Source: a candidate division Zixibacteria bacterium CG_4_9_14_3_um_filter_46_8
GTDB lineage: Bacteria; Zixibacteria; MSB-5A5; UM-FILTER-46-8
Reading direction: 5' to 3'
DNA: 33,329 nt
Assembly (NCBI GenBank): GCA_002791595.1
Contig: PFXJ01000024.1
Coordinates: 1 to 33,329, forward strand
This document shows positions 21,515-31,875 of this stretch, one piece after another. The translations under genes and the position numbers were made by a program. Position 1 is the first letter of the stretch. Each line of letters begins with the position of its first letter. The notes under the pieces were generated by a model. The model saw only the letters and a list, made by a program, of their open reading frames with translations, did no database searches and had not been told where the DNA came from.

Positions 21515-23425
21515 TCAATTCACTACCTCATAATCAGCATCGACCGCTTTGCCGCCTTTTTCGCCCGATGTTTCGGTCTGAGTCTGTTGTTGACTGCCTG
21601 TTTGACTGGCGGAATGTTGCCCGGCTTGCTGTTGATACATTTTCGATGAAGCCTGATGCCAGACTTGCTGAAGCGATTCAGTTGCTGATTTGATTTCGCT
21701 AATATCATCGCCTTTCAGCGCCCCTTTAAGCCTGTCGGCGGCCGCCTGAACTCCGGCACGTGTATCGGCATCGATTTTGTCCTGGAATTCCTTCAGTTGT
21801 TTTTCAGTCTGATATACAAGTTGATCGGCGTTGTTGCGGGCATCGATGACTTCCCGACGCTTCTTATCCTCTGCCTCGTTCGACTTGGCATCATTAACCA
21901 TTTTCTTGATTTCCTGCTCCGTTAAGCCACTGGAAGCTTCTATGCGAATCGATTGCTCCTTGCCGGTGGCTTTATCCTTGGCGGCAACTTTAAGAATGCC
22001 GTTGGCATCAATATCAAAGGCAACCTCAATCTGCGGAATTCCCCTTGGCGCCGGCGGAATCCCATCAAGATGGAATCTGCCGATGGTTTTGTTATTAATC
22101 GCCATTTCACGTTCGCCCTGCAAAATATGCACCTCAACCGATGTTTGGCTATCGCCGGCCGTTGAGAAAACTTCAGATTTTTTGGTCGGGATAGTAGTGT
22201 TTCTCTCAATCAAACGGGTGAACACTCCGCCCAAAGTCTCTATCCCCAGCGAAAGCGGCGTAACGTCCAACAGAAGGACATCTTTCACATCGCCAGCCAA
22301 GACTCCCCCCTGAATGGCCGCGCCTACCGCCACTACCTCATCGGGATTGACACCCTTATGCGGCTCTTTGCCAAACAATTCTTTCACAACTTGCTGAACT
22401 CTGGGCATACGGGTCATCCCGCCGACCATAACCACCTCATCTATTTGAGAAGCGGGAAGCCCTGCATCGTCCAAAGCCCGTTTCACCGGTCCGATGCTTC
22501 TCTCGATAAGGTCATCAACCAACTGCTCGAATTTGGCACGGGACAATATCATATTAAGATGCTTGGGCCCATTGGCATCGGCGGTTATGAATGGCAGATT
22601 GATGGTCGTTTCCATCGTGGATGAAAGCTCTATCTTTGCCTTTTCCGCCGCTTCCTTCAATCTCTGAAGCGCCATCGGATCCTTTGACAAATCTATTCCG
22701 TCCGACTTACGGAACTCATCGACCAGCCAATCGATGATGCGCTTGTCGAAGTCATCTCCTCCCAGATGTGTATCACCATTGGTGGATTTGACTTCGAAAA
22801 CGCCATCTCCCAATTCGAGAATCGAAATGTCAAAAGTGCCGCCCCCAAGGTCATAGACTGCAATCTTCTCGTCCTTTTTTTTGTCCAGACCGTAGGCGAG
22901 CGATGCCGCGGTTGGTTCATTGATTATTCTCAAGACCTCCAACCCGGCAATCCTCCCCGCATCTTTGGTCGCCTGACGCTGGGAGTCATTGAAATACGCC
23001 GGCACCGTTATCACCGCTTTGGTGACTTTCTGGCCAAGATAATCCTCCGCGGTCTTCTTCATCTTCTGCAACACCAGCGCCGAAATTTCCGGCGGAGAAT
23101 ATTGATTCCCCTCAATCTCTATTCGAGCGTCGCCATTCGGCCCTTTGACCACTTTATACGGGAAATTCTTAATTTCCTCGATTACCTCATCATACTTGCG
23201 TCCCATAAACCGCTTGACCGAGAAGATCGTGTTCAGCGGATTGGTGATCGCCTGACGCTTGGCTATTTGCCCCATTAACTTCTCGCCATTCTTGGCAAAT
23301 CCGACCACAGATGGCGTGGTGCGGCTCCCTTCTGAATTATTTATCACGACCGGGTCCCCACCTTCCATCACTGCCACGCAGGAGTTGGTGGTCCCCAAAT
23401 CGATTCCTATGATTTTATCTGACAT
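21515..23425 (-). CDS. dnaK: Molecular chaperone DnaK (Hsp70)
   Basis: The 636-residue protein is full-length Hsp70: [14 protein letters not shown] phosphate-binding loop, [53 protein letters not shown], then the linker [19 protein letters not shown] and the peptide-binding domain. The end is a Q-rich segment with DADYEVVN in place of the common EEVD-like end. A strong GGAGGAG lies 7 bases before ATG and is located inside the end of the preceding gene, which overlaps by 11 bases. No grpE or canonical dnaJ is nearby. No CIRCE element is visible upstream. Confidence 0.97.
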
Positions 23426-24317
23426 GATTTGTCTCCTCCTTTATTTCAAATCTAATTTCGCCTTCGCCTCTGATGGGTATCATATTCCTAATCTCTTTGC
23501 TCGACAGAATTTGCTCAGGCAATGGATTTTCTGCGTCTGGTAGCCGCATCAATGTGGGTGGCATCTCTGGTGACACACGCGGGTGAAATACTATGACTCC
23601 GCCTAGCCACTTATGTCTCTCTCCCCGCAATTCCGCTCCTGCGGGATCGATTGCCAATTCGAGGTGGCGTTTGGTCGAGCCTGAGGGAGGCCAGAGGATG
23701 TCGAACTTGCCAAATAACTCCTTCAAGGCACCATCGTCCAGAGGAGGGCCATTCCGATGGACAATTGCAATTACGGTTGGCAAGCCCGGGTATTTTTTCA
23801 CCTGCTCCCTAGTTCTTCCTATTATCTCGTGAAACCACCCCTTGAAATATACTGGCTCTCCACCTCGTTTTCGACCGATGTGGCAAGGGGTTGTGCGGGC
23901 CTCACGAATTTGAAAATCCATAACCTCTATTTCCACTCTACCCTTGAGAAAGCCCACTCTGTGCCCAGGTCTTCTATTCTCTATATTGGAAAAATGCCTT
24001 TTGTATTCCGCGAGCAACCTCTTATAATCGCAAGCCTCCGGGCGCTGGCAAAAATCATAAGAAACAAAAATAGCAATTGGAATTGTTGACTTCTGCAGCG
24101 TGTGCTCGATCTCATTCTGTATTCTCTCATTCGCTCGCCCATCATTGAAATGCTCTTTTGTTTTCACTTCGACTATGAATTCGTCCTTGCCTTTTACTGC
24201 TTTATAGTCAGGCTTCTTTTGACTCGTATCATTGCCATCATCAATTCGGATAACCTGGTATCCTTTTCCTTCAAGAAATTCTCTGACATATTTTTCGTCT
24301 ATGTTCTCTTGATGCAT
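23415..24317 (-). CDS. PD-(D/E)XK nuclease-like protein of unknown function, overlapping dnaK
   Basis: From ATG 24317 the product is 300 residues. GGAG lies 5 bases upstream of this ATG, which makes it better than the TTG six codons earlier. The N-terminal 55 residues read like a PD-(D/E)XK nuclease: KKPDYK with D37, then [10 protein letters not shown] with E50 and K52, after a strand-helix opening. The remainder ([53 protein letters not shown]) is not recognised but looks like one domain that could be a sensor or binding part. It shares a transcript with dnaK and overlaps it by 11 bases. The sequence alone does not say whether it cuts DNA. Confidence 0.7.
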
Positions 24318-24337
24318 CACAACTCCATTTGACAATT

Positions 24338-25412: not shown

Positions 25413-26603
25413 TCAGATTTTCTCCAACGCCTGGCTAATATCTTCCAGCAGATCCTCTATATCTTCTATACCGATTGAAATACGCACCATTGATGGCGTA
25501 ACTTCCGCGCGCCCAAGCTCTTCATCGGTCATCCCATATTGCGAAGTCAAAACCGGAATGCTGGCAATCGATTCCACTCCCCCCAAGCTCACTGAGTTCA
25601 AAATGAGTTTCAGATTGTCCGCAAATTTCTCTGCGGCGGCTTGCCCGCCCTTAAGCTCGATATTAACTATCCCCCCGAATCCGTTCATTTGCGATTTCGC
25701 CAATTCATGTTGAGGATGGGACTTCAATCCCGGATAATGGACTCTCTTTATCCTTGGGTGCCCTTCGCAAAACTGCGCCACTTTCGACGCATTCTCATTA
25801 TGCTTTTCCATCCTTACAGAAAGCGTCTTGATGCCTTTCAGCAGAAAGAAACTCGCTGACGGGTCCAGATTAGTCCCCAACAATTTTCTGAAAGTCCATA
25901 CTTTTCCCATTAACGCCTTTGAGCCGGCGACTGCGCCACAGATCAGATCGCTGCTGCCGGAAAGATATTTGCTTCCGGAATGGATCACCAGGTCGATTCC
26001 GAAACTGATTGGGGTTTGGTTAATCGCTGTGGCGAATGTGCTGTCAATCACGGATACCAAATTATGATTCTTCGCAAATGCGGCCGCCTTCTCTAAATCG
26101 GTTAATTTTAAATTGGGATTGGATGGTGATTCGATGTAGAGGAGTTTAGTCCGTTCGGTCGCTAGGCGCTCGGCCCCGTCAAATCCACGGCTGTCGAAAA
26201 ACCTGACCTTCACTCCGAATTTTGGCAGAATGTCTCGAAACAGTGAGAATGTTCCTCCATAGATAGTATCACCCGAAATTATCTCATCGCCGCCTTTTAC
26301 CAGCGCCGTTATTGTGGAGCTGATGGCGCCCATCCCTGATGAAAAAATCAACGCCTTCTCAGCTTTCTCCAGGCCTGCGATATGCCCTTCCACCTCCATC
26401 ACGGTGGGATTGTCATATCGGCTATAAATATAATACGACTTATCTCCAGCCTGATAATCTTTCAACTGCTGAGTTTTCTCATAAACAAAATTAGTGCTTT
26501 GTACAATCGGCGGATTTACTGGCTGAAGTTTCATAGGAGGACGACCTATCCCGTGAACTGCCACAGTTGATCGTCCCAAAGATTTTCTTTTATTCATTTC
26601 CAT
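25413..26603 (-). CDS. Trans-sulfuration PLP enzyme (cystathionine gamma-synthase/lyase family)
   Basis: The 396-residue product belongs to the Cys/Met metabolism PLP family. Landmarks are IYSRYDNPT, IFSSGMGAISS (cofactor phosphate site), YIESPSNPNLKLTDL, D187 in VIDSTFA, and the Schiff-base K212 in HSGSKYLSGSSD. The family includes cystathionine gamma-synthase, beta-lyase, gamma-lyase and methionine gamma-lyase; these cannot be told apart safely here. The start overlaps the polyferredoxin gene by 14 bases, so it is the last gene of the DUF362 operon. ATG 26597 is a near alternative start. Confidence 0.88.
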   Translation of the reverse strand: MEMNKRKSLGRSTVAVHGIGRPPMKLQPVNPPIVQSTNFVYEKTQQLKDYQAGDKSYYIYSRYDNPTVMEVEGHIAGLEKAEKALIFSSGMGAISSTITALVKGGDEIISGDTIYGGTFSLFRDILPKFGVKVRFFDSRGFDGAERLATERTKLLYIESPSNPNLKLTDLEKAAAFAKNHNLVSVIDSTFATAINQTPISFGIDLVIHSGSKYLSGSSDLICGAVAGSKALMGKVWTFRKLLGTNLDPSASFFLLKGIKTLSVRMEKHNENASKVAQFCEGHPRIKRVHYPGLKSHPQHELAKSQMNGFGGIVNIELKGGQAAAEKFADNLKLILNSVSLGGVESIASIPVLTSQYGMTDEELGRAEVTPSMVRISIGIEDIEDLLEDISQALEKI

Positions 26604-28152
26604 AATCCTTATTGTCCTTTCCGAATTGTCCGCCGGGTCGGAATCTTTGCTGATTTTTATTGGTTATACAAACACCCCGTGCCCCTTCAACCGGGCATTT
26701 GAATTCGCAAATCCCGCAACCGATACAGAGTTCTTCCACTATGAATGGGAATTTAATCATCTTTTTCGACCCGTCACGATATTGATATTCCTCCTGCTTA
26801 AATTCTATCGCCTTCTTGGGAGTCGGGCAATGCTCTTCGCAAACGATGCACGGGGTTCCATTGGCATACGGAAGGCATCGATTTTTATCGAAATAGGCCA
26901 GGCCAATAACCGTTTTATGCTTTGCCTCCACATTAAGCGGATGAATTGCACCTGAGGGGCAAACTTCGGTGCAAAGGGTGCAGTTGTACTCGCAATATCC
27001 GGTGCCGGCTACTCCGTAGGGAGTCAACAAGCCGGCCCACCCACCTTCCAACAATGATGGCTGGAGGAAATTTCCGGATGTTGCGCAAGCCCGCAGGCAT
27101 TGGTAACATCTTACACATCGTTCCACGAATTCCGCTTCGGGTGTGCTCCCCGGAGGCCGAATCAGCTTAGATGCCTGTTCCGGCCTGATGTAAGAAATGC
27201 CGGTCAATGAGGCGGCCGCAATTCCTCCCACGCCGGAAAGCAATAGCTTTCTTCTGGTAAAATCAGTCACACAACTTTTGGCTTCACCTCTGAAATTTAT
27301 AATTGTGGCTCCGGGTGCGCAGACATCGACGCAATTGAAACATTGAATGCATTCCCGGAACTCCGTCTGCGAAAAATCCTCGGGGATAGCGTTGGTCTTG
27401 CAAACCAGTTGGCATTCCCCGCACTCTGTGCAATCCTGATTGACCTTGCGTTTTAGCCTTTGGGGCATCCCCATCAATCCTAACATCGCTCCCAGAGGGC
27501 AGACCACCTGGCAGAAAACCCGACGGCTATAAAGTTCAAATCCAATAATGACGGCGAATATCAGCCCAAGAATAAAGGCAGTTTGAAAATAATACGGCTC
27601 CAACGGAAGAAGGCTGTCAATCAAAGATGACTGCAACCCCAGCAATTGAAATTGAAGCGGCTCGATTTGGAAAAGTAAATTAAAGATATAATTGAACGTG
27701 GTAACAACAATCGGCAATAAGGCCACCGTAAAAATCCGAGTAGTTAGGGCGATGGGATCAAGATTATAGACCAATTGGTAGCCCAGTACCGCCGATAGAA
27801 AAAAGCCTGATAGAAGGTAGTATTTCAAGTGCTGAAATTGGCGCAATTTGAATCTATTAACGGTTCGACCGATGCGGGAAACCAAATCTAGAGTCGTTCC
27901 CATCGGGCACACCCACCCGCAAAATACTCTGCCCAGAATTATGGTCGCCGCTATTACCGCAATCGATGCCAACATCGAAGGAATCAAAACCCTTGCGGCT
28001 ATCATTCCCAGCAATGCCAGCAACGGGTCTGCCCGAAGGTAAAGATCGACCGGAATCCATCGTCCGCTTACTTCCGAGGTTTTCCAAAAGAGATAGAGGA
28101 AAAATAATAAAAATAATATCTGCGAGGAGATTCGGATCTTGCGAATGGTCAA
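26590..28152 (-). CDS. Membrane polyferredoxin, NapH-like fused to NapG-like
   Basis: The 520-residue product joins two modules. Residues about 1-225 form a NapH/MauN-type membrane part with several helices and the conserved CGWVCPMG and CQVVCPLGAM motifs, then two 4Fe-4S motifs, CTECGECQLVC and CIQCFNCVDVC. A second hydrophobic segment begins RRKLLLSGVGG, like an internal Tat-type helix, and is followed by a NapG-like domain with four more clusters (CVRCYQCLRAC, CEYNCTLCTEVC, CIVCEEHC, CIGCGICEFKC). Six clusters could pass electrons across or along the inner membrane. The partner is unknown. It overlaps DUF362 upstream by 4 bases (ATGA). Confidence 0.88.
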   Translation of the reverse strand: MTIRKIRISSQILFLLFFLYLFWKTSEVSGRWIPVDLYLRADPLLALLGMIAARVLIPSMLASIAVIAATIILGRVFCGWVCPMGTTLDLVSRIGRTVNRFKLRQFQHLKYYLLSGFFLSAVLGYQLVYNLDPIALTTRIFTVALLPIVVTTFNYIFNLLFQIEPLQFQLLGLQSSLIDSLLPLEPYYFQTAFILGLIFAVIIGFELYSRRVFCQVVCPLGAMLGLMGMPQRLKRKVNQDCTECGECQLVCKTNAIPEDFSQTEFRECIQCFNCVDVCAPGATIINFRGEAKSCVTDFTRRKLLLSGVGGIAAASLTGISYIRPEQASKLIRPPGSTPEAEFVERCVRCYQCLRACATSGNFLQPSLLEGGWAGLLTPYGVAGTGYCEYNCTLCTEVCPSGAIHPLNVEAKHKTVIGLAYFDKNRCLPYANGTPCIVCEEHCPTPKKAIEFKQEEYQYRDGSKKMIKFPFIVEELCIGCGICEFKCPVEGARGVCITNKNQQRFRPGGQFGKDNKDYGNE

Positions 28153-29066
28153 ATTGTGGCTACCTTTAGATTCATTTTTTCTATATCAATCTCACCCAAT
28201 CCATATTTGGGTCCATTGACAATATAACCTATGTCCGTTGGTTTTCTGCCGAATAAGGTGGTTGCATAAGCGTCAGCTGAAGCGATGTCCGGGCTGGCAA
28301 TAATCGTATCCATTTTTTCGACATCGCTTAGATTTCCTCCTTGAGGTCCGTTGGCGGTTAAGACGCGAGTGGCATCGATAATGGTCAATTGCGGTTTGAT
28401 AAATGCGGCCAGTTCCGGCAGGTATTGATGGATTTTCCAATGAATTTGCCCCCGATCCCCTCCCATCAATCCCATAAGGTTCTTCATCCCCAACGTCAGT
28501 TCGCAAAGCCCATGATGCTTCGCAATCGGGATATTGATAATGCAATCAGCTTCCAATGCGGGAGTGTAAAGCTCCCATTTGGTCAGGAAGGTATTATTAG
28601 GCATATCATACATTCTAAAGCCGGCATCGACCACAAAGGAAACCATCGCTCCGGCATCTTCCGCGGCGGAGGCAATCCCGGAATTGGCATAGCATCTTTT
28701 GCCGTTATTGCAGGTTCGGTCAAAAACCATAACTTTTGCCGCACCTGCCTCAAAACACATCTTCACAGCTTCAGCAACTACTTCGGGATTGGTATCAGCC
28801 GCCTGTGATGGATTCCGATCCCAACCGATATTCGGCTTGACAATCACCTTGTCCCCCTTCTTCACAAATTTCCCCATTCCACCAATCATTTCCACTGCCT
28901 TGCGGGTCATAGCCGCCGGAAGTCCTTTCTTGACCACCGCAATGGATGGCAAACCCGTTCTGACCTCTGCGTCCGCCATCAATTCTTGCGGCATACCCAA
29001 AATCACTCCGGCGCCTATAACCCCTGCTGTCTTGATGAACTGTCGGCGATTGGTAAATTTATCCAT
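28149..29066 (-). CDS. Tat-exported DUF362 protein
   Basis: The 305-residue product starts with a Tat signal (TNRRQFIKTAGVIGAG, RR at 7-8), so it is probably folded in the cytoplasm and exported. The rest matches the DUF362 family: KVIVKPNIGWDRNP, MVFDRTCNN, INIPIAKHHGLCELTLGMKNLMG and SADAYATTLFG. Members are often found next to ferredoxin-type membrane proteins in anaerobes and may bind a cofactor; the reaction is unknown. AGGAGG lies 5 bases before ATG. It is the first gene of the operon with the polyferredoxin and PLP enzyme. Confidence 0.9.
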   Translation of the reverse strand: MDKFTNRRQFIKTAGVIGAGVILGMPQELMADAEVRTGLPSIAVVKKGLPAAMTRKAVEMIGGMGKFVKKGDKVIVKPNIGWDRNPSQAADTNPEVVAEAVKMCFEAGAAKVMVFDRTCNNGKRCYANSGIASAAEDAGAMVSFVVDAGFRMYDMPNNTFLTKWELYTPALEADCIINIPIAKHHGLCELTLGMKNLMGLMGGDRGQIHWKIHQYLPELAAFIKPQLTIIDATRVLTANGPQGGNLSDVEKMDTIIASPDIASADAYATTLFGRKPTDIGYIVNGPKYGLGEIDIEKMNLKVATI

Positions 29067-29455: not shown

Positions 29456-30898
29456 ATGCTTTTTAATTCACTGCACTTCGCAATATTCTTTCCTATAGTT
29501 CTTATCCTTTATTTTGCGTTGCCCCATCGATTCCGGTGGATAGTGTTGCTGGCGGCAAGCTATTATTTCTATATGGCTTGGAAGCCCGAGTATATCATAT
29601 TGCTTATAATCACTACTAGCATCGATTATTATGCCGGAATTCGAATGGGCCGGCAGGCAATCAAGTCGAAGCGCACCAAATATTTAATACTTAGTCTGAC
29701 TGCCAACTTCCTTTTGCTGTTTTCATTCAAATACTTCAATTTTTTCAATGAATCTCTGAGAATGGCCTTGCAACATTATAATATATTCTATGGAGTGCCG
29801 GCGCTAAAAGTTTTGTTACCCGTCGGCATTTCATTCTATACGTTCCAGAGCGTCAGCTACGCCATTGACGTTTATCGCGGCGTAAAGAAACCGGAACCAC
29901 ATCCCGGTATATTTGCCGTGTATGTTGCCTTCTTTCCACAATTGGTGGCAGGCCCGATTGAGCGCTCCACCAGTCTTCTGCCGCAATTTTCTGAAAAACA
30001 TTCTTTTGATTATCGTGAAGCCGTTGATGGTTTGAAACTTATGGCTTGGGGGTTTTTCAAAAAAATGGTGATAGCGGATCATCTCGCCTATTATGTCAAT
30101 GCCGTCTATAACAAGCCGGCTGACCATACTGGCTTGCCATTGCTGATAGCCACTTACTTTTTCGCTTTGCAGATATTTTGCGATTTTTCCGGCTATTCGG
30201 ACATTGCCATCGGCAGTGCCAGGATAATGGGATTCAGGTTGATGACCAACTTCAACCAGCCCTATTATGCGCAGTCGATAGCCGAGTTTTGGAAAAGATG
30301 GCACATTTCCTTATCGACATGGTTCAAGGACTATTTTTATATTTCTCTTGGCGGTAATCGGGTATCCAAATGGAGATGGTATTTCAATCTGGGAGCAACT
30401 TTCCTGGTCAGCGGGCTTTGGCATGGCGCCAATTGGACCTTTATTGTATGGGGTGGGTTGCATGGGTTTTATATGATATTATCGATCCTTACCGAGAGAT
30501 TTAGGAATACATTAAGCAGATTTACTTATTTAAGCCGGTTCCCCAAGCTCCACAAGTATGTGAAAATATTTATCACCTACCACCTTGTCCTGGTTTCCTG
30601 GGTTTTTTTCCGTGCCAATTCCCTGTCGGATGCGCTCTTTATTCTTAGAAATATGTTCAACATAGATTTCGCGCATCTCGGATTGCGGATGTTTGTCTAT
30701 AGATTTAGCTGGGAGGTGGCGATCCCCTCAATTCTCACTCTGGTGTTGGTTCATTGGGTTCAGCGGAGAATCAGTATCAGTCAATTCCTGACACAGCAAC
30801 CATTTTGGGTGCGTTGGCCGATTTATTATGTCGCCGTAATGTATATTCTTATATTTGGGCAATTTTCGGAGCAGGCGTTCATCTATTTCCAATTTTAG
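29456..30898 (+). CDS. MBOAT-family O-acyltransferase (AlgI-like)
   Basis: The 480-residue product is a polytopic membrane acyltransferase. Landmarks are the N-terminal FNSLHFAIFFPIVLILYF, PVGISFYTFQSVSYAIDVYRG, FFPQLVAGPIERSTSLLPQF, FCDFSGYSDIAIGSARIMGF, FWKRWHISLSTWFKDYFYISLGGNR and the catalytic H323 in LWHGANWTF. AlgI-type members carry acetyl groups across the inner membrane for O-acetylation of exopolysaccharide or cell-wall polymers. AGGAG lies 4-5 bases upstream of ATG. The partner gene follows 11 bases later, so the two work together. Confidence 0.93.
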   Translation: MLFNSLHFAIFFPIVLILYFALPHRFRWIVLLAASYYFYMAWKPEYIILLIITTSIDYYAGIRMGRQAIKSKRTKYLILSLTANFLLLFSFKYFNFFNESLRMALQHYNIFYGVPALKVLLPVGISFYTFQSVSYAIDVYRGVKKPEPHPGIFAVYVAFFPQLVAGPIERSTSLLPQFSEKHSFDYREAVDGLKLMAWGFFKKMVIADHLAYYVNAVYNKPADHTGLPLLIATYFFALQIFCDFSGYSDIAIGSARIMGFRLMTNFNQPYYAQSIAEFWKRWHISLSTWFKDYFYISLGGNRVSKWRWYFNLGATFLVSGLWHGANWTFIVWGGLHGFYMILSILTERFRNTLSRFTYLSRFPKLHKYVKIFITYHLVLVSWVFFRANSLSDALFILRNMFNIDFAHLGLRMFVYRFSWEVAIPSILTLVLVHWVQRRISISQFLTQQPFWVRWPIYYVAVMYILIFGQFSEQAFIYFQF

Positions 30899-30909
30899 GT
30901 AATCGAGAT

Positions 30910-31875
30910 ATGGTCTTAAAGTTGATCGGGAAAATTCTGCTCTTGATGCTGTTGGTGGTGATGGCATGCTTGGTGATGATCCGATTCGGTTTATTCAGCA
31001 AAGAGAATTATTATTACACGATCCAGGATAAATGTAACCGATTGGCAACGACCCCATCGCCCAAATTTATACTGGTGGGCGGCTCCAACACAGCATTCGG
31101 TTTGGACAGCAAGAAAATTCAGGAAGCCACCAATTATCCTGTGGTGAATATGGGAAGTGCTGCGGATATAGGATTGCGGTATATGATTCAATCGGTAAGG
31201 CAATATATACACAAAGATGATATAGTTGTGGTAATTCCTGAATATTATCAGTTCACGACATATTTTAATGGCAGCAGTGCTTTGACAATTTTGATGGAGG
31301 TTTACCCGCAAAGCGTCCAATATTACACCTCTCGGGAGCAATATCTCAATGCCCTGAGAGGGGTGCCCAGCTATCTTCGGCTAAAATTCACTTCAATGTT
31401 GAAGATACTTTCAGGATACAAAGAAGTTCTCTTGTTCGGCGGTAGGAAGGCCTTCAATGAATATGGCGACTATACCTACCGCGATGCCAAAAGGGCGGAA
31501 TTCGATGTAGGGAAACAGTCGCTTTTCGGTGGACACGAAGAGTTGAAGTTTGAAAAGGAAGCAATCGAATTCATTAACGAATTTTATCGATTTACCAAAG
31601 AAAAAGGGGCGACGGCGTTGTTTTTCTTTCCCGCTATTTCTCAATACCATTACAATCAGAATGTCAATGTAATCGAAGAAATCGATTCGACATTGCGATC
31701 CGGACTTGAGATCCCGATACTTAACTCGCCTACGGACGAAATTTATCCGCTCGATTTATTTTATGATAGTCCTTATCATTTGAGCCTTGAGGGCCGTGAC
31801 CGCCGCACCGACAAATTCATCGAGTATTGGCGGCACCTAACCAACGCGCCGCTTTTGACGGCAGAGCCCAAATAA
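30910..31875 (+). CDS. SGNH-hydrolase-like partner of the MBOAT acyltransferase
   Basis: From ATG 30910 the product is 321 residues; further upstream in-frame codons lie inside the MBOAT gene. It has one N-terminal membrane helix (IGKILLLMLLVVMACLVMI) and an extracytoplasmic domain that begins KFILVGGSNTAFGLDS, resembling block I of SGNH/GDSL hydrolases with Ser as nucleophile. It ends DLFYDSPYHLSLEGR, which could supply the catalytic Asp-x-x-His. Proteins like this (DltD/AlgJ-X type) take the acyl group from the MBOAT protein and place it on the final polymer. The exact target is unknown. Confidence 0.78.
   Translation: MVLKLIGKILLLMLLVVMACLVMIRFGLFSKENYYYTIQDKCNRLATTPSPKFILVGGSNTAFGLDSKKIQEATNYPVVNMGSAADIGLRYMIQSVRQYIHKDDIVVVIPEYYQFTTYFNGSSALTILMEVYPQSVQYYTSREQYLNALRGVPSYLRLKFTSMLKILSGYKEVLLFGGRKAFNEYGDYTYRDAKRAEFDVGKQSLFGGHEELKFEKEAIEFINEFYRFTKEKGATALFFFPAISQYHYNQNVNVIEEIDSTLRSGLEIPILNSPTDEIYPLDLFYDSPYHLSLEGRDRRTDKFIEYWRHLTNAPLLTAEPK

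What the first reader, a model, noticed from the sequence alone, without database searches (positions are those of the whole stretch)
26590..29066. Overlapping operon: Tat-exported DUF362, six-cluster membrane polyferredoxin, PLP sulfur enzyme
The three genes overlap by 4 and 14 bases, so they are translationally tied. DUF362 proteins and NapH/NapG-like polyferredoxins are known neighbours without a known reaction. Adding a cystathionine-type PLP enzyme links this electron-transfer module to sulfur amino acid chemistry. This could be an undescribed membrane redox pathway, or the PLP gene may just share a transcript.
Basis: partly seen in the sequence, partly recalled or inferred. Interest (0 to 1): 0.6.

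Follow-up and report, generated by a model that had tools for sequence, protein, structure and literature searches.

The report
Exported LarA-fold protein with membrane polyferredoxin
Two neighbouring genes, kept side by side across many bacterial phyla, encode a secreted protein of "unknown function" that looks like a relative of a nickel-cofactor enzyme and a membrane protein that carries electrons, so a whole family of unknown proteins may be nickel-cofactor redox enzymes; the third gene noticed (a sulfur amino-acid enzyme) belongs only to a few close relatives.

Summary
The operon is real: DUF362 (28149-29066), polyferredoxin (26590-28152) and a PLP enzyme (25413-26603), all on the minus strand, with overlaps of 4 and 14 bases. 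The genome is a Zixibacteria MAG. The polyferredoxin is a NapH-NapG fusion of a published dual Sec/Tat family. DUF362 plus polyferredoxin is conserved (33/35 Zixibacteria loci; 78/80 named loci from many phyla). The PLP gene is third only in Zixibacteria (4/35; 1/80); DUF6599 is the commoner neighbour (20/35). Main new result: DUF362 has a LarA (nickel-pincer nucleotide, NPN) fold. All 18 significant PDB fold hits are LarA-type enzymes; a deep profile alignment puts invariant H185, K195 and H209 (125/125 sequences) on LarA's acid-base His, NPN-binding Lys and Ni-ligand His. larB/larC/larE lie next to the pair in two distant genomes, and DUF362 presence predicts larC better than larA does (Acidobacteriota 151/171 vs 60/126; LarA-free genomes 70/84 vs 25/80). 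Cytosolic DUF362s carry a ferredoxin nested just after the Ni-ligand His. Best reading: a Tat-exported LarA-like oxidoreductase wired to the quinone pool by the polyferredoxin. NPN binding, substrate and electron direction are inferred. Six pair-bearing genomes lack LarC.

The parts
28149..29066 (-). DUF362 protein (305 aa), Tat-exported, LarA-like fold
   Evidence: PF04015 E=7e-49; AF2 pLDDT 88.6; Foldseek: 18/18 PDB hits with E<1e-3 are LarA-type NPN enzymes
28962..29066 (-). N-terminal twin-arginine signal (TNRRQFIKTAGVIGAGVILG...)
   Evidence: TIGR01409 above its cut-off; R7/R8 at least 90% conserved in 30 relatives
28440..28520 (-). Codons 183-209, K183-x-H185-x9-K195-N196-x12-H209, aligned to LarA H174, K184 and H200
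   Evidence: hhalign; H185, K195 and H209 in 125/125 DUF362 sequences
28149..28152 (-). 4-base overlap DUF362/polyferredoxin (TTGA)
26590..28152 (-). Polyferredoxin (520 aa): NapH-NapG fusion, six 4Fe-4S motifs plus two CxxxCP motifs
   Evidence: NapG and NapH/MauN models, below full-length cut-offs as expected for a fusion; 24 conserved Cys
27193..27255 (-). Internal twin-arginine TM segment (residues 300-320, RRKLLLSGVGGIAAAS) between NapH-like and NapG-like parts
   Evidence: R301 invariant; same place as the Tat-dependent TM5 of the polyferredoxin of PMC5449189
26683..27147 (-). NapG-like part with four 4Fe-4S motifs, predicted extracytoplasmic
   Evidence: NapG model match to residues 296-491
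26590..26603 (-). 14-base overlap polyferredoxin/PLP gene
   Evidence: same 14 bases in G002, 26 in G001, 29-base gap in G005
25413..26603 (-). PLP enzyme (396 aa) of the cystathionine/methionine gamma-lyase fold family; predicted cytosolic; clade-restricted partner
   Evidence: PF01053 E=1e-126; below the cut-off of every NCBIfam equivalog; best PDB relatives are methionine gamma-lyases

Best explanation
The core is a conserved two-gene extracytoplasmic redox module. DUF362 is a LarA-fold protein, folded in the cytoplasm and exported by Tat, that keeps LarA's nickel-pincer nucleotide site: a lysine to tether the cofactor (K195), a histidine to ligate nickel (H209) and one acid-base histidine (H185). 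LarA's second catalytic histidine is not kept, so it would do one-sided hydride chemistry (net oxidation or reduction) rather than racemisation. The polyferredoxin, a NapH-NapG fusion whose last third crosses the membrane by Tat, relays electrons between DUF362 and the quinone pool. Cytosolic DUF362s carry the matching 2x[4Fe-4S] ferredoxin nested in the same chain. The PLP enzyme is a cytosolic, clade-specific addition. Shown here: gene order, family membership, fold by prediction, residue correspondence, co-occurrence with NPN biosynthesis. Inferred: NPN binding, topology in this organism, electron partner and direction, substrate.
For: Fold: AF2 model pLDDT 88.6; all 18 PDB hits with E<1e-3 are LarA-type, the next hit is E=0.02. 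Residues: hhalign DUF362 vs LarA score 38.1 against a maximum of 26.1 in 60 column-shuffled controls, 17.9 reversed and 19.8 for an unrelated family, with H185=H174, K195=K184, H209=H200, invariant in 125/125. Published roles: Lys184 tether (PMC11796402), H200 Ni ligand (PMC11851776), His108/His174 acid-base (PMC12611868). Genome context: larE-larB-larC divergent from DUF362-polyferredoxin in Zixibacteria L053; larC-larB and larE beside AKR-DUF6599-DUF362-polyferredoxin in Syntrophaceae L150 (all six over equivalog cut-offs). Co-occurrence: Acidobacteriota LarC 151/171 DUF362+ vs 60/126 DUF362-, p=2e-14; LarA-negative genomes 70/84 vs 25/80, p=9e-12; holds within high- and low-POR genomes. Zixibacteria 41/50 vs 2/8, p=0.0025, while LarA does not predict LarC there. 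Electron path: pair in 78/80 loci; NapGH-fusion topology (PMC5449189); nested ferredoxin after the Ni-ligand His in cytosolic DUF362s.
Against: No NPN or nickel was detected; nothing here is biochemical. Six pair-bearing Zixibacteria genomes (G002, G005, G010, G042, G052, G054) have no LarC hit; five of them still have a LarA-domain protein, and incompleteness cannot explain all. The LarC association is for DUF362 as a whole; for the polyferredoxin pair alone it is p=0.07 in Zixibacteria. Related genomes are not independent and no phylogenetic correction was possible. The paired subfamily alone gives a weak hhalign score (21.0, E=0.069). lar genes adjoin the pair in only 2 of about 115 loci. 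Among control genomes Bacteroides ihuae has DUF362 without LarC, and C. glutamicum and M. jannaschii have LarC without DUF362 or LarA. How a two-electron hydride cofactor would hand electrons to one-electron Fe-S clusters is unexplained.
Confidence: 0.55

Rival explanations
1. DUF362 descends from the LarA fold but no longer uses NPN; the conserved Lys/His/His bind another ligand and the co-occurrence with larC reflects shared lineage or lifestyle.
For: No Lar_N Pfam hit; six pair-bearing genomes lack LarC; PMC11770544 uses DUF362 only as an outgroup.
Against: The three residues that hold NPN in LarA are exactly the invariant ones; the association holds after splitting by LarA and by POR copy number; full larBCE sets sit beside the pair in two phyla.
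Confidence: 0.3
2. The polyferredoxin delivers electrons from quinol outward to keep or repair the cofactor of exported DUF362, or to drive a reduction, rather than carrying electrons from DUF362 to quinone.
For: NapGH, the closest characterised relative, is a quinol dehydrogenase feeding a periplasmic reductase (PMC5449189); CcdA, a reductant-export protein family, is a neighbour in 7/35 Zixibacteria loci.
Against: Nothing here distinguishes direction.
Confidence: 0.35
3. The PLP enzyme is a functional part of the pathway, for example supplying sulfur for the NPN thiocarboxylates or processing a sulfur amino-acid substrate.
For: Conserved overlap in family f1 and linkage to DUF362 genes in five Zixibacteria families, in two arrangements; LarE needs a sulfur donor.
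Against: Absent from the pair elsewhere; most orthologues in other Zixibacteria lie in unrelated contexts; free sulfide did not serve T. maritima LarE, while cysteine plus a desulfurase did (PMC9283937); the PLP protein is predicted cytosolic whereas DUF362 is exported.
Confidence: 0.15
4. The PLP gene merely shares the transcript; it is an ordinary sulfur amino-acid gene that slid into the operon in two lineages.
For: Third in only 4/35 and 1/80 loci; orthologues occur in other contexts, often next to DUF123.
Against: Recurrent linkage to two different DUF362 types in five families.
Confidence: 0.6

Closest known systems
LarA (lactate/hydroxyacid racemase) superfamily, nickel-pincer nucleotide enzymes (PF09861, PDB 5huq, 6d6z, 9q3j)
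   Same: Predicted fold; Lys for NPN tether, His for nickel and one acid-base His in the same order and near-identical spacing (H-x9-K-x13-H vs H-x9-K-x15-H)
   Different: DUF362 is shorter (305 vs about 420 aa), misses the Lar_N profile, lacks the H108-equivalent, is Tat-exported and is paired with Fe-S electron carriers
Single-histidine LarA-like enzymes (PMC12611868; 9q3j, 9q2u)
   Same: Top Foldseek hits; one of two catalytic histidines missing
   Different: There the second His (H174) is replaced by Asn; in DUF362 H174 is kept and the H108 position is Cys or Val
Dual Sec-Tat polyferredoxin (MLMS-1 PFD, Q1NSB0; Tooke et al. 2017, PMC5449189)
   Same: NapH-NapG fusion, twin Arg before TM5, six Fe-S motifs
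   Different: That work studied membrane insertion only; I saw no functional partner named in the passages read
NapGH quinol dehydrogenase of nitrate respiration
   Same: Same two halves
   Different: Fused, and paired with DUF362 instead of a molybdenum nitrate reductase
Cytosolic DUF362-ferredoxin proteins
   Same: Same H/K/H motif, with 2x[4Fe-4S] nested in the same chain
   Different: No export signal; Fe-S in cis instead of in the membrane partner
Methionine gamma-lyase / cystathionine gamma-synthase family
   Same: Fold, PLP lysine region, PF01053
   Different: Lacks the methionine gamma-lyase signature residues (C116 to Gly, K240 to Arg, D241 to Lys; read from the alignment) and scores below every NCBIfam equivalog cut-off

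Membership tests
DUF362 (PF04015) | Profile match above gathering cut-off | tested here: met
   167 bits vs 24
LarA / NPN enzyme family | Lar_N (PF09861) profile match | tested here: not met
   Only PF04015 and TAT_signal reported at E<=1e-3
LarA / NPN enzyme family | LarA fold | tested here: met
   18/18 PDB hits with E<1e-3 are LarA-type, TM 0.43-0.51 of query; predicted model, not solved
LarA / NPN enzyme family | Lys tethering NPN and His ligating nickel | tested here: met
   K195 and H209 aligned to K184 and H200, invariant in 125/125
LarA / NPN enzyme family | Two acid-base histidines (H108, H174) | tested here: not met
   H174 = H185 kept; H108 position is C119 (Cys 73%, otherwise mostly Val)
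LarA / NPN enzyme family | NPN biosynthesis genes in the genome | tested here: inconclusive
   Strong family-level association with larC, but six pair-bearing genomes lack it
LarA / NPN enzyme family | Bound NPN / hydroxyacid isomerase activity | not testable with these tools
   Needs biochemistry
Dual Sec-Tat NapH-NapG polyferredoxin (PFD) | NapH-like CxxxCP membrane part fused to NapG-like Fe-S part, twin Arg before last TM | tested here: met
Dual Sec-Tat NapH-NapG polyferredoxin (PFD) | Tat-dependent insertion of the last TM | not testable with these tools
   Shown experimentally for a relative (PMC5449189)
NapGH quinol dehydrogenase | NapG and NapH equivalog cut-offs | tested here: not met
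   90.8 vs 269 and 71.5 vs 234 bits; neighbour is not a nitrate reductase
Methionine gamma-lyase | Catalytic Cys116 and Lys240/Asp241 | tested here: not met
   Gly, Arg and Lys at these positions (alignment)

The most novel reading that the evidence does not exclude
DUF362 is the missing non-LarA client of the nickel-pincer nucleotide in the many genomes that make NPN but have no LarA, and the window's member is a respiratory one: an exported NPN oxidoreductase that exchanges electrons with the quinone pool through a NapGH-type polyferredoxin, i.e. net redox chemistry rather than isomerisation.
Probability: 0.42. Interest if true: 0.88.

Novelty: new variant of a known kind. Interest (0 to 1): 0.7.

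Why it matters
About 15% of genomes analysed elsewhere carry larB, larC and larE but no larA, and the proteins that use their NPN are unknown (PMC11796402). DUF362, a widespread family of unknown function, fits: LarA fold, the NPN-holding residues invariant, and presence that tracks larC where LarA is absent. This makes an open question directly testable with an existing NPN expression system, and suggests that nickel-pincer chemistry also serves net electron transfer.

Tried and rejected
PLP enzyme as a regular third gene: rejected by gene order in 35 Zixibacteria and 80 named loci. PLP as a standard methionine gamma-lyase: signature residues absent. Sequence search of DUF362 against the PDB: no hits. 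Structure prediction of the polyferredoxin: pLDDT 50.8, not used. Shallow hhalign with 30 DUF362 and 15 LarA sequences: probability 0.95%, E=0.058, though already in the right register; deeper alignments were needed. Pair-level larC co-occurrence in Zixibacteria: only p=0.07. PLP as sulfide supplier for LarE: weakened by PMC9283937. POR as an anaerobe control: nearly ubiquitous (276/297), so copy number >=3 was used as a crude proxy. Plasmid search: only distant Bacteroidota relatives and NapG. Literature: no paper in the held open-access library links DUF362 with NPN or a polyferredoxin, apart from the shared Pfam clan.
Full report
OBSERVATION. The stated interval omits the PLP gene (25413-26603). 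Domain calls are firm for all three. The polyferredoxin has six 4-Cys cluster motifs, 24 cysteines, and two further NapH-type CxxxCP pairs. The window is part of contig C22 of a 2.7 Mb, 94% complete MAG.

CONSERVATION OF THE PAIR. In 58 same-class genomes, 35 loci carry the polyferredoxin. DUF362 lies directly upstream in 33, and the other two start at a contig edge. A scan of named genomes with the DUF362 alignment gave 80 loci from Zixibacteria, Nitrospirota, Desulfobacterota, KSB1, Spirochaetota, Acidobacteriota and others; 78 have the pair and one is cut at a contig end. The pair is the unit. The third gene varies: DUF6599 near 20/35 Zixibacteria loci, CcdA 7, PLP enzyme 4, ferredoxin-type aldo/keto reductase 3. 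The PLP gene is third in G000, G001, G002 (family f1) and G005 (f3), absent from G003 of the same family, and present in 1 of 80 named loci. Independently, PLP orthologues in families f8, f13 and f16 sit beside another DUF362 gene, usually with DUF123 between, so a loose link between this PLP enzyme and DUF362 proteins is real within Zixibacteria.

THE POLYFERREDOXIN IS A KNOWN TYPE. Tooke et al. (PMC5449189) described the MLMS-1 polyferredoxin as a fusion of NapH (four TMs, cytoplasmic clusters) with NapG (four periplasmic clusters), with a Tat-dependent fifth TM after a twin arginine. Our protein has the same layout: an invariant R301 in TRRKLLLSGVGGIAAAS between the NapH-like and NapG-like parts. 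By homology it links the quinone pool to the outside of the membrane. That is inference from NapGH; the structure prediction was too poor to add anything.

WHAT DUF362 IS. No PDB sequence relative exists. The AF2 model from 30 relatives is confident (pLDDT 88.6), and every one of its 18 significant PDB matches is a LarA-type NPN enzyme. Pfam places DUF362 and the LarA domain in one clan, and LarA workers have used DUF362 as an outgroup (PMC11770544). The residue-level result appears not to have been reported in the library searched. A first profile alignment found one ungapped match, placing H185 on LarA H174 and K195 on K184. With 125 DUF362 and 35 LarA sequences the alignment became nearly full length and also put H209 on H200. 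A rerun scored 38.1 against a best of 26.1 in 60 column-shuffled controls. In LarA, Lys184 carries the cofactor (PMC11796402), H200 ligates nickel (PMC11851776), and His108 and His174 are acid-base catalysts (PMC12611868). H185, K195 and H209 are invariant in 125/125 DUF362 sequences, including distant paralogues (23 of these paralogues were extracted with a K-x-H-x9-KN pattern, so for them only H209 is an independent test, while the 102 paired sequences were not so selected). The H108 position is Cys or Val, so DUF362 resembles the recently described single-histidine LarA-like enzymes, though it keeps the opposite histidine.

LINK TO NPN BIOSYNTHESIS. In Zixibacteria L053 an overlapping larE-larB-larC operon is divergent from DUF362-polyferredoxin, with about 140 bases between the likely starts. 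In Syntrophaceae L150, larC-larB and opposing larE directly precede AKR-DUF6599-DUF362-polyferredoxin. All six genes pass NCBIfam equivalog cut-offs. In L217 (Caldithrix sp.) larC adjoins another DUF362. Across 297 Acidobacteriota genomes, larC is in 151/171 with DUF362 and 60/126 without (p=2e-14). Where LarA is absent it is 70/84 vs 25/80 (p=9e-12). In a joint model the odds ratio is 12.6 for DUF362, 4.2 for LarA and 0.22 for POR copy number. In Zixibacteria it is 41/50 vs 2/8 (p=0.0025), with no effect of LarA; within family f7, 2/2 vs 1/6. Of 50 pair-bearing genomes from other phyla, 39 have larC (no matched background). Limits: relatedness is not corrected, the association is at DUF362 level (pair level p=0.07), and six pair-bearing genomes lack larC.

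ELECTRON TRANSFER. The cytosolic DUF362s next to PLP genes carry two 4Fe-4S motifs inserted about ten residues after the nickel-ligand histidine (KGH-x9-KN...GKMHFQ...CxxCxxCxxxCP...CxxCxxCxxxCP). The exported form has no such insert but is nearly always next to a separate polyferredoxin. The same LarA-like domain thus seems to receive its Fe-S relay either in cis or in trans. This is the best argument that DUF362 does net redox chemistry.

MODEL. DUF362 is made and loaded in the cytoplasm, exported folded by Tat, and works outside the membrane on an unknown substrate by hydride transfer to or from a nickel-pincer cofactor; the polyferredoxin connects it to quinone. Direction and substrate are open. 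DUF6599 and the Tat-signalled aldo/keto reductase are likelier partners than the PLP enzyme, which lacks methionine gamma-lyase signature residues, matches no specific equivalog, and is probably a cytosolic sulfur amino-acid enzyme sharing the transcript in a few lineages.

VERDICT. Observation confirmed; interpretation partly supported; the interest lies in DUF362 rather than in the PLP gene.

Noticed in passing
L150:5718-6866 and L118:5460-6608: Aldo/keto reductase with an N-terminal twin-arginine signal and C-terminal 4Fe-4S motifs, upstream of DUF6599-DUF362-polyferredoxin; a possibly exported AKR.
   Followed up: partly
L231, L232, L243, L244; L038:2820-4387: The PLP enzyme is followed by a DUF123 (PF01986) gene in many Zixibacteria, with a 4-base overlap in some; no reason known.
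   Followed up: partly
G005, G010, G014, G047, G052: Zixibacteria families f3, f8 and f16 have LarA-type proteins with intact NPN motif but no LarC hit; a different nickel insertase or loss of NPN use is possible.
   Followed up: no
Acidobacteriota set: 25 genomes have LarC with neither LarA nor DUF362, so further NPN clients may exist.
   Followed up: no
23415-24335 (-): 306-aa ORF between dnaK and hsp20 with no Pfam match; its N-terminus ([19 protein letters not shown]) resembles a PD-(D/E)xK nuclease core by eye.
   Followed up: no
29456-31875 (+): MBOAT acyltransferase followed by a 373-aa protein without Pfam match, resembling a polysaccharide O-acetylation pair; divergent from the DUF362 operon.
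   Followed up: no
L040, L042, L046, L063, L116: A second Tat-signalled DUF362 (PF04015) next to the first in family f13 and in a Nitrospirota genome, suggesting a two-DUF362 variant of the module.
   Followed up: no
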